In this document: positions 20,756 to 25,158 of the stretch, one piece after another
How positions within the stretch are numbered: the stretch's first letter is position 1
Layout: each line of letters begins with the position of its first letter
NCBI GenBank assembly: GCA_021014945.1
Contig: MU266647.1
Span: forward strand, 1 to 27,011
Length of the DNA: 27,011 nt
Source: Leucogyrophana mollusca
Taxonomy: Eukaryota; Basidiomycota; Agaricomycetes; Boletales
Direction: 5' to 3'
Made by a program: the position numbers and the translations under genes
The notes under the pieces: generated by a model
Databases searched by the model: none
Told to the model about the DNA's origin: nothing
What the model saw: the letters and a program-made list of their open reading frames with translations, nothing else

Positions 20756-22755
20756 TCAAACGATATCGTACATCACGACCAGTTCGTTTTCACACAGGCA
20801 CACGAGTGTATGCTTCCCCTGTGGATTTTTGACTGCCCCAACACCCAACAATGACCCAGCAGCCCCATCCCCTACTTTCAGCACACTTTGCTTTGCCCAC
20901 AGCTGATTGGCACGAGTACCGCGATATAGGTACACGTTTCCTCCGCGATCCTGAGCGCCATTCTCAAAAGCGAGAACAGCGTTTGATGAAACGTGGTAAG
21001 TGAATCGTGTGTCACGTTTGGAGGCCAGCACAAAGGCCAGCGCTGAATACGTGGCGGAATGCGTCCAAGTTGCGGGGCTGTCTTTGATGGTTGCCGCCCC
21101 CAGCGAGAATAGAGTCCCGTCGATCCCATTCTTCACCACTAGAGACGTGTCGAAGCCGGAACCCGGAAGATCCACGGAGAGTAAGTTGAAGGGCGAATCA
21201 GGATGACTGGCCCACGCTGGCGTTCCCCCCTCTTCACCTACCCATGTGAAGAAAGCTGCTCTCCCAATGGACGAATCGACTTCTTCGTCCATCTCGCCCT
21301 GTGCAAGCGCGGGTACGCCGCGACCTAAGCCAAGGCCGCTTGCATCTTCACCATCTCGTAGAGCTGCGGTGTATTTCTCCAGGGACTCCCGTATAGCGTA
21401 GAGCTCGGAGGGGTCGAGCGTCTCTGGGACTTCTACATCGTCTCCGGATGCAGACGTGGTGAACACCTGCATCCACCTCGTGTTTTCATTCTGCTTGTCC
21501 AAATGCAGAGTGAGCAAACCAAAAGAATGTCCACCCTCACGGTCCCACGTCCAGAAACTGCTCGAAGGCTGGATGCCGTCCCATAGTTGCTTGAGCGAAT
21601 AGTGGGGTAGGTTGGCGGAATCTGCGGAGGGTGTGCCCTGGACGTGGACTGTCAGCGTTCTCTGCGAAAATGAGACTTTGATGTGAGATTTGGGAGTTGT
21701 CGCTGGGAGGGGGAATGCGACCGTGACCGAGTCTGAAGTTTGCGTCCAGGAATAGGGAGGTGGTTTCAGGGGCAGAGCAGCGCCCACATTCAGGTTCTCG
21801 TCGAGACGCGGAATTGGGGCGACTTCGTCGGGAGATGGCTCGTAGGAGGGGGCAACTGGGGCGCTAACACTGCGATACGTAGAACTACCGATGAGAAGAT
21901 AACAGTTTCTCGAGTCGTCGTAGGTGGCGAAGATAGGGACGTCTTCTCCGCGTCTTCGCCAGATAATATCCAGCCCTCCAACGTCATTTTGTGTCTTCGT
22001 GAATGGCAAGGTGAGCTGCGCAGCCCACACATCGAACTCTGAAAGGGTCTTTCCTGCAACTCTGCGCGAGCTCGTAGCTGATGAGTCCGCTCCCGCGTCG
22101 TGATAGTGTCGTGATGATAAGAGGACAGCTGCATACGATTGAGATGTCTTGGCGGAATTGTGAATGCGGAAGGGGATGGATGTACTCGGTGAGGTGCTAG
22201 AAGGGTCCGTCAATTCGTAGCACCCGAGGAGGTTGGCGAGGCCATTTTCGGGTATGCCGAGAACGTATAAGGCTCCTTGCCCGTCGGCAACGAAAGCGAC
22301 GTTTGGATCCAGAAATGAGGCAGAAGGATACTCATGATGGACGGAATCCACATCGGGACTGTTTATCACTCTCGGAAGCTCATACACGACTCTGAAGGAA
22401 GGTTCTTGCCTGTCCTACTTGGGCCATGCATGAGCGGAGATTCAGCGCATCCCGAGTCGATCTAAAGCTAAAAGGAACTCACCTCTGCAAGATCAAGCAC
22501 AATGACTTTGTGCTCTGCATCGATATAGAGGCCTCGTCTTCCCTCACCAGCAATTACAAGGTGATTGTGCGTAATGCGGCTCTGAACCTCTTGGAAGGAC
22601 AGTGGAGACCTTCCAGAAGCAGTCGATTGAGTTGGTTTGTGTTCGAGGTTGAAGCGTACCACTGCATCCTCTTGCGCGATCAAATCCAGCTTGTAGCCCT
22701 CAAACTTGGGGTTCAGCAAAGAACGGTCTGGCTTGAAAGTCGACATCCCAGCCAT
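20756..22755 (-). CDS. NUDCD1-like protein with CS (NudC/p23) domain
   Basis: 643 aa in two exons, 22755-22483 and 22414-20756, joined by a 68-nt intron (GTGAGT...AAGTAG) that links VLDLAE to DRQEPSFRVVYELPRV. Residues about 311-400 form a CS domain: PYSWTQTSDSVTVAFPLP, then HIKVSFSQRTLTVHVQG, ending in FWTWDREGG, which corresponds to the W-T-W/I core of p23 and NudC proteins. The N-terminal half has beta-propeller-like repeats (FVADGQGALYVLGI) and the C-terminal part another beta-rich region, matching the NUDCD1 (CML66) layout; human NUDCD1 is 583 aa. CS proteins act as Hsp90 co-chaperones, and NUDCD1 assists folding of selected beta-propeller or DEAH-helicase clients, so a chaperone role is likely. 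A second Met three codons in (22746) is an alternative start. The start is divergent from the CFA-synthase gene, 358 nt away. Confidence 0.85.
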
Positions 22756-23113: not shown

Positions 23114-25158
23114 ATGTCTAAACAGCTCCTGGACACTCCATCCAAGCATTCGTCTTCGCTAGTTGCTCTAGCCGACAGCGCGTGGAACAATATCCGCGAC
23201 AGAGCGTTCGGTGCAGCATGGTCCCCGCTGACTAGGTTGGCAGAAAAGGCTGCATTGACGTCCGTATAATTATTTTCATCTTTGCCCGCGGAACTAAATT
23301 ATGCTGTTTTTGACCAGCCTGATGCAGAGGATAGATGTTGGTCACCTCCGGGTACTGACCTACTCGAATATATACGAGTTCCCATTGCCAGGTTCTGAGG
23401 TTTCAAACGCAAGAGATGATCTTCGCGCAGAATTACGCGTAGTAAACGACGTGTTCTGGGTGAGGTTATGCGCTATGGGTGACCTCGGCTTTTCCGAGGC
23501 GTATATGTACGGCGACGTGGAATGCGACGACCTCGTCGCACTATTTGAGGTTCGTACGCATATTATCACATGGCATATATCCCGACCGACCGCCAAATAC
23601 TGAACAGATATTCCTTCTCAACCGCAAAAACTTGTCAAATATGGATTCTATGACTTCCTATCTGTTTACTCTACCCCAAAAGCTCACTTCGTACCGATTC
23701 CTCAACAACATTGGCAACTCGCAGTCAAACATTTCGGCGCATTACGATATCTCAAATGAAATGTTTGCAGGTATGATCATTGCGTGATCCCTCTCCGTCG
23801 CTGAAGCCATCTCCACAAGGGTTTCTCTCCGAAGACATGACATATTCATGCGCCATCTTTGATACCCTTGACGGTGACCTCAGGGGCTTGCACGGGAACC
23901 AACACGCCTGGAGCGGTGGTCAGCGTCTTTTGCGCCTTCGTTCACCTTCATCGCGAAGCCTGGACTCAGCCATTCACTGGTACCCCCCTCCCCCACCCAC
24001 CCAGACACCTAAAGACGAGCTCCATGATGCCCAAATGCGTAAATTGCGACACATCGTCGCTAAAGCGCGCCTGTCCTCCAATCAACGCGTCCTTGAAATT
24101 GGATCCGGATGGGGCTCCATGGCGATCCTCATTGCGCAGAGCTTTGCGGGAACAACCGTCGACACCCTCACGCTCTCCGTGCGTCAACAATCCATGGCCC
24201 AGTCCCGTATAAAGGCGGCCGGGCTTGAAGAGAGAATTACTGTGCACTTGATGGACTATCGTGCGATGCCTGATGTTTGGAAAGGGCGTTTCGACCGAGT
24301 CATTAGCATTGAGATGATCGAAGCTGTTGGGGCCGAGTTCCTAGAGGAATATTGGGGTGTAGTTGATTGGGCTTTGAAGCCGGACGTTGGTGTGGGTGTG
24401 GTGCAAGTTATCACCATTCCAGAGCCACGTAAGTGTCACCTGTCGATCTACGGACTTGAAACTCATACGATATAATAGGTTACGATCGGTACCGTCAAGA
24501 AATAGACTTTATCAGGAAATGGGTAAGCCCCGTCTATCATGTGTGATCGCTGGTTCTCATCGTACCCCTCTAGAGTACGCACATGTACGCGTCGTTCGGT
24601 CCCTCGTACTGACACTTCATCACCCAGTATTCCCGGGTGGCTTTTTGCCCACTGTCACGCACCTCTTGCAAGCGATGGAAAAGGGGTCATCTGGCCGGCT
24701 CATTGTGGATTCTATATCGAATATCGGCCCTCATTACGCACGCACTCTCCGTGAATGGCGTCGACGTTTCCTAGACCGTTTCGACAGCGTTATAATACCC
24801 GCCCTCAGGGCCGAATATCCATCTGTCATGTCTGGCCCGAGGGGAATGCACGAAATCGAGGTCTTCAAGCGGAAGTGGCTTTGTAAGTAGACCAGGTTTC
24901 GTGTCCCTGTGTAATATGCTGATCGGCACCGCGCACGAATAGATTACTAGTGAGTATTGTGTCGACTTCGACGTCATGCGCCCCTGATGAGGTGAATTAG
25001 CTGCTACTGCGAGGTGGGATTCACGACCAGGACGTTGGGAGGTAAGGCTTGTTTCGTTGTGTTGAGGCTGCGCTCTGAATGTTGACTTGGTAACAGACCA
25101 TATCATCACCTTCACGCGGGAGGGTTGTGTACAGTACGGGTGCGATGTGTATGAGTAG
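23114..25158 (+). CDS. Cyclopropane-fatty-acyl-phospholipid synthase-type methyltransferase
   Basis: S-adenosylmethionine-dependent enzyme of the CFA synthase family, 519 aa, which in bacteria adds a methylene bridge to unsaturated acyl chains of membrane lipids; the fungal product is not certain. Motifs: IDVGHLRVLTYSNIYEFP, NISAHYDISNEMFAGFLSEDMTYSCAIF, SAM motif VLEIGSGWGSMAI (271-283), VHLMDYR, FDRVISIEMIEAVG, VGVVQVITIPEPRYDRYRQE, DFIRKWIFPGGFLPT, ISNIGPHYARTLREWRRRF, and the ending YYYCYCEVGFTTRTLGDHI, TFTREG. Exons: 23114-23259, 23318-23549, 23608-23770, 23820-24428, 24479-24522, 24574 (one base), 24628-24882, 24943-24949 (7 nt), 25001-25041, 25097-25158 (1560 nt). Residues about 201-243 are a Pro/Arg-rich insertion before DELHDAQMRKLRHIV that has no obvious counterpart; it may contain a missed intron. 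The first donor (GTCCGT at 23260) was chosen by protein continuity. Confidence 0.9.
24574..24574 (+). other. Candidate single-nucleotide microexon (A) in the CFA-synthase gene
   Basis: The exon ending ...ATC AGG AAA TGG (24522) is followed by GTAAGC, and the next good exon starts TA TTC CCG GGT GGC at 24628. The phases do not match: one extra base is needed. Within the 105-nt gap lies TCTAG|A|GTACGC, which splits it into introns of 51 nt (24523-24573) and 53 nt (24575-24627, with CTGAC before CACCCAG). The inserted A makes ATA, giving KWIFPGGF, the family consensus residue. No single GT-AG intron gives that protein. Confidence 0.72.
24943..24949 (+). other. 7-nt microexon of the CFA-synthase gene
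   Basis: ATTACTA lies between CGAATAG and GTGAGT. With the flanking bases it encodes Tyr-Tyr-Tyr, so the protein reads KWLYYYCYCEVGFTTRTLGDH, as in the family. Flanking introns are 60 nt (24883-24942) and 51 nt (24950-25000). Without it the frame downstream is lost. Confidence 0.85.

What the first reader, a model, noticed from the sequence alone, without database searches (positions are those of the whole stretch)
24523..24627. A single-nucleotide exon in a cyclopropane-fatty-acid synthase gene
Seen: exon ...AAATGG then GTAAGC; exon TATTCCCGGG after CACCCAG; the two are out of phase by one base, and TAG|A|GTACGC sits in the 105-nt gap. Splitting there gives introns of 51 and 53 nt, right in the size range of this genome, and yields the conserved KWIFPGGF. 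Known: a 1-nt exon has been described in the Arabidopsis APC11 gene, so it is mechanically possible, but such exons are extremely rare. Inference: either the two introns are removed stepwise (the A completing a recursive splice site) or the exon is defined across introns. The downstream protein stays perfectly conserved, so the gene does not look decayed.
Basis: partly seen in the sequence, partly recalled or inferred. Interest (0 to 1): 0.92.

Follow-up and report, generated by a model that had tools for sequence, protein, structure and literature searches.

The report
One-nucleotide exon in mushroom CFS1 gene
A fungal gene for a lipid-modifying enzyme only makes sense if one of its protein-coding pieces is a single DNA letter between two introns, and database proteins of other mushrooms suggest that they share this piece and that it is usually mis-annotated.

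Summary
In a CFS1-like cyclopropane-fatty-acid synthase gene of Leucogyrophana mollusca (Boletales), exons ending at 24522 and starting at 24628 are one base out of phase. The 105 nt between them split into introns of 51 and 53 nt around a single A at 24574. The ten-exon, 519-aa model equals the deposited protein of this contig in 518 residues; the exception is I399, deposited as V, which no GT/GC-AG solution tested gives.

Relatives suggest inheritance. All 13 unnamed proteins from short contigs (taken for transcripts) read KW-I-FPG. Of 147 deposited models only 16 do: 29 read V, 57 have two residues there (50 fit a donor shifted by 4 nt), 23 have more, 22 are skipped or garbled. The junction is gapped in 101 of 147 models, against 4-13 at introns 2-4.

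A shared 1-nt exon explains this best, but no fungal ortholog DNA or RNA reads could be fetched, so it is shown at DNA level in this window only, and its splicing is inferred. Nuclear 1-nt exons are already published (plant APC11 and VPS55, Fusarium CYP621A), so this is a new member of a known kind, notable if class-wide.

The parts
23114..23259 (+). CFS1 exon 1 (ATG start)
   Evidence: model, equal to P0001
23260..23317 (+). intron 1, 58 nt (GTCCGT...GACCAG)
23318..23549 (+). exon 2
23608..23770 (+). exon 3
23820..24428 (+). exon 4 (carries LEIGSGWGS)
24479..24522 (+). exon 5, 44 nt, ends ...AAATGG in phase 0
24523..24573 (+). upstream intron, 51 nt, GTAAGC...CTCTAG; YTNAY-type branch candidate CTCAT (A 14 nt before the intron end)
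24574..24574 (+). single-nucleotide exon A, first base of the ATA (Ile399) codon
   Evidence: relatives
24575..24627 (+). downstream intron, 53 nt, GTACGC...CACCCAG; branch candidate CTGAC (A 15 nt before the intron end)
24628..24882 (+). exon 7, begins TA TTC CCG GGT (rest of the Ile codon, then FPG)
24943..24949 (+). exon 8, 7-nt micro-exon ATTACTA (within KWLYYYCYCE)
25001..25041 (+). exon 9, 41 nt
25097..25158 (+). exon 10 with stop

Best explanation
The A at 24574 is a constitutive single-nucleotide coding exon of a CFS1-like cyclopropane-fatty-acid synthase gene. Two ordinary short introns (51 and 53 nt), each recognised by intron definition, flank it. They are removed one after the other, because U1 on the downstream donor (24572-24580) would cover the AG of the upstream intron (24572-24573). 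The A then forms the ATA codon of Ile399 in KW-I-FPGG. The same arrangement was most likely inherited across Agaricomycetes. Deposited models fail there because predictors cannot place a 1-nt exon: they borrow a neighbouring G (V), shift the donor by 4 nt (VI/VL/AI), read into the intron, or skip the exon. Shown: the sequence, the frame requirement, and the failure pattern in deposited models. Inferred: actual splicing in this species, stepwise removal, the cause of the failures, and the 1-nt exon in other species' DNA.
For: Only in-frame solution among those tested that gives KWIFPGG. Chance of a YAG.GTRNG split 0.42%. The 519-aa model is identical to deposited P0001 at 518 of 519 residues, sole difference I399/V. 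V from this DNA needs a 104-nt intron with ends GT..CA, TA..AG, AA..GT or AG..TA (four equivalent placements). All 13 unnamed 'lgn'/'jgi' proteins read KWIFPG; of 147 deposited models I 16, V 29, two residues 57, three or more 23, skipped or garbled 22 (one row moved by eye). Of the 57 two-residue forms 50 are [V/A][I/L/V], the signature of GT or GC directly after TGG plus N+TA. Junction gapped in 101 of 147 models versus 12, 4 and 13 at introns 2, 3 and 4; the 13 unnamed proteins clean there. On the tree an unnamed protein beside two Ganoderma models reads I while they read LI and LNFAV; three near-identical Agaricus bisporus models read AI, VI and a 51-residue insert. The four solved bacterial relatives whose alignments were shown all have I there.
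Against: No cDNA or read of this species was seen. Fungal DNA of relatives could not be fetched. The deposited model has V, and one of two readable bacterial relatives has V, so I is not obligatory. The 16 models that read I (two of them rusts) may hold a simple intron. Three Trametes models read I while other Trametes read VL. That the 13 unnamed proteins are transcript ORFs is assumed from their clean junctions and, for two, from contig length. Rows are related cluster representatives from capped lists, so counts are not independent. The downstream donor is weak (4 of 9 to the U1 consensus).
Confidence: 0.92

Rival explanations
1. One non-canonical 104-nt intron (24523-24626 GT..CA, 24524-24627 TA..AG, or two equivalent placements) gives KWVFPGG, as in the deposited protein P0001.
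For: P0001 reads V at residue 399; V also in 28 other models and in one bacterial relative.
Against: None of the four placements has GT-AG, GC-AG or AT-AC ends; none of the 13 transcript-like proteins reads V; V is what would result if the lone A were laid on an adjoining G (inference).
Confidence: 0.04
2. A single 101-nt GC-AG intron (24527-24627) leaves GTAA in the mRNA and gives KWVIFPGG.
For: In frame and free of stops; 17 of 147 models read VI and 24 read VL.
Against: Donor TAA|GCCCCG is a poor GC donor (judged from recalled consensus); none of the 13 transcript-like proteins carries the extra residue; near-identical Agaricus models disagree among themselves.
Confidence: 0.02
3. A single 53-nt intron 24523-24575 ends at TAGAG and the remaining 52 nt are coding, replacing I by the 18 residues YAHVRVVRSLVLTLHHPV.
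For: GT-AG, right size, in frame, no stop; 23 models have three or more residues there.
Against: Absent from all 13 transcript-like proteins and from P0001; it would split a motif shared with the four solved bacterial relatives shown.
Confidence: 0.01
4. A one-base assembly error or a decaying gene copy.
For: One missing base beside 24522 or 24628 would restore a simple intron phase.
Against: The rest of the model is intact and equal to the deposited protein; 101 of 147 models are gapped at this junction, and Hygrophoropsis at 85% identity has an extra residue there; a DNA search of the assembly found no second copy.
Confidence: 0.01

Closest known systems
Single-nucleotide exon of Arabidopsis APC11 (PMC4674806, part 1 of 3 read)
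   Same: A lone A between AG and GT, constitutive, required for the frame, wrong in the annotation; shown there by cDNA and mutant constructs.
   Different: Plant gene with a 422-nt intervening region; here 105 nt with both introns about 50 nt, and no cDNA.
1-nt exon of Fusarium CYP621A P450 genes (PMC12940212, parts 1 and 2 of 3 read)
   Same: Fungal nuclear gene, 1-nt exon inside a conserved motif, an over-long apparent intron (139 nt) as the hint, deposited gene models wrong at the junction, shared by orthologs.
   Different: Ascomycete genus, exon G (AGGGT), ortholog DNA and SRA reads shown; here Basidiomycota, exon A (AGAGT), neither available to me.
1-nt micro-exon of plant VPS55 (PMC8831610, passages read)
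   Same: Conserved over a large clade and missing from reference annotations.
   Different: Some lineages there also make a form without it by intron retention; I saw no evidence on alternative forms here.
Stwintrons, [D1,2] type (titles and abstract starts)
   Same: Two short fungal introns that go in sequence.
   Different: There one intron splits a splice signal of the other; here both introns have whole sites and one base stays in the mRNA. The [D1,2] reading of this stretch loses the frame.

Membership tests
single-nucleotide exon (nuclear, spliceosomal) | one base flanked by canonical AG and GT, each intron complete | tested here: met
single-nucleotide exon (nuclear, spliceosomal) | the base is needed for the reading frame of a conserved protein | tested here: met
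single-nucleotide exon (nuclear, spliceosomal) | cDNA or reads of the species contain the base | not testable with these tools
   no RNA data on hand; only transcript-like proteins of relatives
single-nucleotide exon (nuclear, spliceosomal) | conserved in orthologs (supporting feature) | tested here: inconclusive
   protein-level pattern strong; fungal ortholog DNA not obtained
CMAS / CFS1-like cyclopropane-fatty-acyl-phospholipid synthase | PF02353 above gathering score | tested here: met
   190.9 bits against cut-off 27
CMAS / CFS1-like cyclopropane-fatty-acyl-phospholipid synthase | NCBIfam bacterial CFA synthase equivalog cut-off | tested here: not met
   214.5 bits against 600 and 184.7 against 400; so not filed as a bacterial equivalog; relatives are named CFS1-like
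CMAS / CFS1-like cyclopropane-fatty-acyl-phospholipid synthase | enzyme activity | not testable with these tools
   none
stwintron | internal intron interrupts a splice signal of an external intron and the mature frame is kept | tested here: not met
   [D1,2] reading gives ...FIRKCIPGWLF; other stwintron types not enumerated
zero-length recursive splice site | AG directly abutting GT | tested here: not met
   AG-A-GT, one base between

The most novel reading that the evidence does not exclude
A single-nucleotide coding exon has been kept in CFS1 since the common ancestor of Agaricomycetes (Boletales, Agaricales, Polyporales, Russulales, Auriculariales, Cantharellales). Constitutive splicing of a 1-nt exon would then be evolutionarily stable across a whole class, and most deposited CFS1 models would be wrong at this codon.
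Probability: 0.78. Interest if true: 0.72.

Novelty: new member of a known kind. Interest (0 to 1): 0.63.

Why it matters
My searches (listings only, capped at 20 of 131 and 20 of 39) showed no 1-nt exon in Basidiomycota. The gene belongs to the family of Coprinopsis cfs1, reported to restore fruiting-body initiation in a mutant (introduction passage of PMC8805025). If class-wide, it offers a natural series of species for asking how two introns one base apart are ordered and why neither is lost. It also suggests a cheap detector for such exons: a junction where deposited models of relatives disagree in GT/GC-shaped ways while transcript-like proteins agree.

Tried and rejected
DNA of relatives: the search for related loci with P0001 and with alignment A1 in genome contigs and viral contigs gave no fungal locus (one search gave three bacterial loci, the others none). 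RNA folding around the exon: no more stable than shuffles (z = +1.24). Paralogues in the same genome: the C89 copy reads RRYMWPNS without an intron there; tblastn with the model at E<=1 found nothing in the C148 copies, so they say nothing on the junction. The first intron 1 boundaries (23264-23327) were replaced by 23260-23317, which match P0001. A [D1,2] stwintron reading was rejected for frame. The [D1,2] paper PMC12403724 was searched for four terms and none occurs. Class counts (138 models) are superseded (147). The classes come from a regular expression that put 24 rows under three or more residues and 21 under other; one of the 24 (P0019) skips the exon and I count it with the skipped, making 23 and 22. 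Splice solutions with AT-AC ends were not enumerated. U1 consensus and branch-site patterns are recalled. Fungal orders are recalled, except for Leucogyrophana, and so is the reading of 'lgn' as assembled sequencing-archive contigs. I did not search the whole genome for other 1-nt exons.

Full report
What is there. The window is contig C321 of a 32.3-Mb assembly. A deposited protein on a 27,011-bp contig, P0001, named cyclopropane-fatty-acyl-phospholipid synthase of Leucogyrophana mollusca, matches the gene; the species is in Boletales.

Frame. Joining the two large exons directly breaks the frame after KW; adding the A gives KWIFPGGF. I listed in-frame, stop-free solutions with GT or GC donors and AG acceptors for single introns (30-160 nt), and GT-AG for intron pairs (40-100 nt each). 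Five single introns and two pairs pass, and only the pair around A24574 starting at 24523 gives KWIFPGG. AG.GT occurs once in the 105 nt. In 20,000 shuffles of the inner 93 nt a split with both halves >=40 nt arises in 6.1%, with YAG and GTRNG in 0.42%, and with A as the base in 0.035%. The gene's other seven introns are 49-60 nt, so two introns of 51 and 53 nt fit and one of 105 nt does not.

The deposited model. My ten-exon model gives 519 aa and agrees with P0001 at 518 residues; the one difference is residue 399, I here and V there. From this DNA the same flanks with V arise from a 104-nt intron in four equivalent placements, with ends GT..CA, TA..AG, AA..GT or AG..TA. A parallel is printed for Fusarium CYP621A, where one transcript record is right at the junction but its gene model lacks the exon (PMC12940212, parts 1-2 of 3 read).

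Relatives. Three protein searches listed the best 120 each of 3,847, 6,405 and 3,731 matches, in all 160 distinct cluster representatives. Thirteen come from 'lgn' (11) or 'jgi' (2), carry no source name, and have longest contigs of 1.8-6.1 kb. How they were predicted is not stated. I take them for transcript ORFs: they are clean at all nine intron positions, and for two (P0062, 542 aa on 1,825 bp; P0105, 560 aa on 1,863 bp) the contig is too short to hold nine introns of 50 nt besides the coding sequence. All 13 read KWIFPG. Of the 147 other rows (deposited models, P0001 among them) 16 read I, 29 V, 57 two residues, 23 three or more, and 22 are skipped or garbled. Two of the 16 are rusts. Fisher tests: I against not-I, 13/0 versus 16/131, p = 1.5e-11; among one-residue rows, 13 I/0 V versus 16 I/29 V, p = 4e-5. 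The rows are related, so these p-values overstate independence.

Shape of the errors. If every gene had TGG|GT... upstream and |TA TTC downstream, one base out of phase, a predictor could mend the frame by moving the donor 4 nt inward. That yields V (GTN) or A (GCN), then I, L or V (N+TA). Of the 57 two-residue forms 50 fit: VL 24, VI 17, AI 7, VV 2. Seven do not: VF 3, QV, SL, PI and LI 1 each. One-residue models are only V (G+TA) or I.

Control junctions. In pairwise alignments to the model, the 8 residues around the junction are gapped in 101 of 147 models. The figures are 12, 4 and 13 of 147 at introns 2, 3 and 4; 5 of 147 at intron 1 (47 not assessable); 8 of 147 at intron 9 (8 not assessable); and 47 and 46 of 147 at the two sides of the 7-nt exon (4 and 5 not assessable). 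The 13 unnamed proteins are clean at all nine junctions. Of eight mid-exon control positions seven are gapped in 0-12 models and 0-2 of the 13; one in a variable stretch (residue 470) is gapped in 28 models and 4 of the 13. So the trouble concentrates at the two tiny exons.

Tree. With junction residues cut out, the unnamed proteins fall among conflicting models (FastTree, 51 of 157 branches open, some long branches flagged, P0138 with the rusts among them). P0139 is next to Ganoderma models reading LI and LNFAV; P0015 is with Neolentinus (21-residue insert) and Heliocybe (V); P0116 is with Exidia models (exon skipped; CVCVV). Not all neighbours conflict: P0104 pairs with Stereum and P0098 with Serendipita, both reading I. 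Three Agaricus bisporus models on near-zero branches read AI, VI and a 51-residue insert, which points to annotation, not protein change. Conflicting models occur in Boletales, Agaricales, Polyporales, Russulales, Auriculariales and Cantharellales (orders recalled). The two rust rows read I.

Depth of the residue. The four solved bacterial relatives whose alignments were shown (of 24 matched) read YIFPNG, YIFPGG, YIFPGG and EIFPGG. Of three bacterial loci two have a readable site, one RKWIFPGG and one RKWVFPGG. So I is common and V is tolerated.

Mechanism. Each flanking intron is complete: donor, YTNAY-type branch candidate (CTCAT; CTGAC) and YAG. U1 pairing with the downstream donor would span 24572-24580 and cover the upstream AG, so the two introns can hardly be recognised together across one base; stepwise removal by intron definition is the likely route (inference). 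The downstream intron has the better branch candidate and the upstream one the better donor (6 against 4 of 9), so I do not claim an order. In plants, introns flanking micro-exons are reported to be removed consecutively, the upstream one more often late (PMC8831610, passages). No RNA structure stands out.

Status against print. Nuclear 1-nt exons are printed for APC11, VPS55 and CYP621A; a mitochondrial one is listed for placozoan cox1 (title and abstract start). My searches for micro- and single-nucleotide exons, alone or with fungi, basidiomycetes, Agaricomycetes or mushrooms, listed none in a basidiomycete nuclear gene (titles and abstract starts only, capped). The library holds open-licence papers only, and the original paper on Coprinopsis cfs1 (recalled as Genetics 2006) was not among the hits. 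Hence: a new member of a known kind, notable for its apparent class-wide keeping.

Noticed in passing
24943-24949: A 7-nt micro-exon (ATTACTA) in the same gene, between introns of 60 and 51 nt, encodes part of KWLYYYCYCE. All 13 transcript-like proteins match the corresponding pattern, while 61 of 147 models do not.
   Followed up: partly
20756-22414 (- strand): Neighbouring ORF of 552 aa on the other strand with a CS domain (PF04969, 46.9 bits), apparently head to head with CFS1.
   Followed up: no
upstream donor in relatives (protein level): Seven models read KW-A-I-FPG, which under the +4 donor reading implies a GC donor for the upstream intron in five Mycena species, Favolaschia and one Agaricus bisporus strain.
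   Followed up: no
P0133, P0141, P0146 against P0143, P0148, P0150, P0151: Close Polyporales models split between KW-I-FPG (three Trametes) and KW-VL-FPG: a different pipeline, or loss of one of the two introns.
   Followed up: no
G000 C148:39719-42541: Two CMAS-domain genes lie close together in opposite orientation; tblastn with the CFS1 model did not hit them, so they are probably other subfamilies.
   Followed up: no
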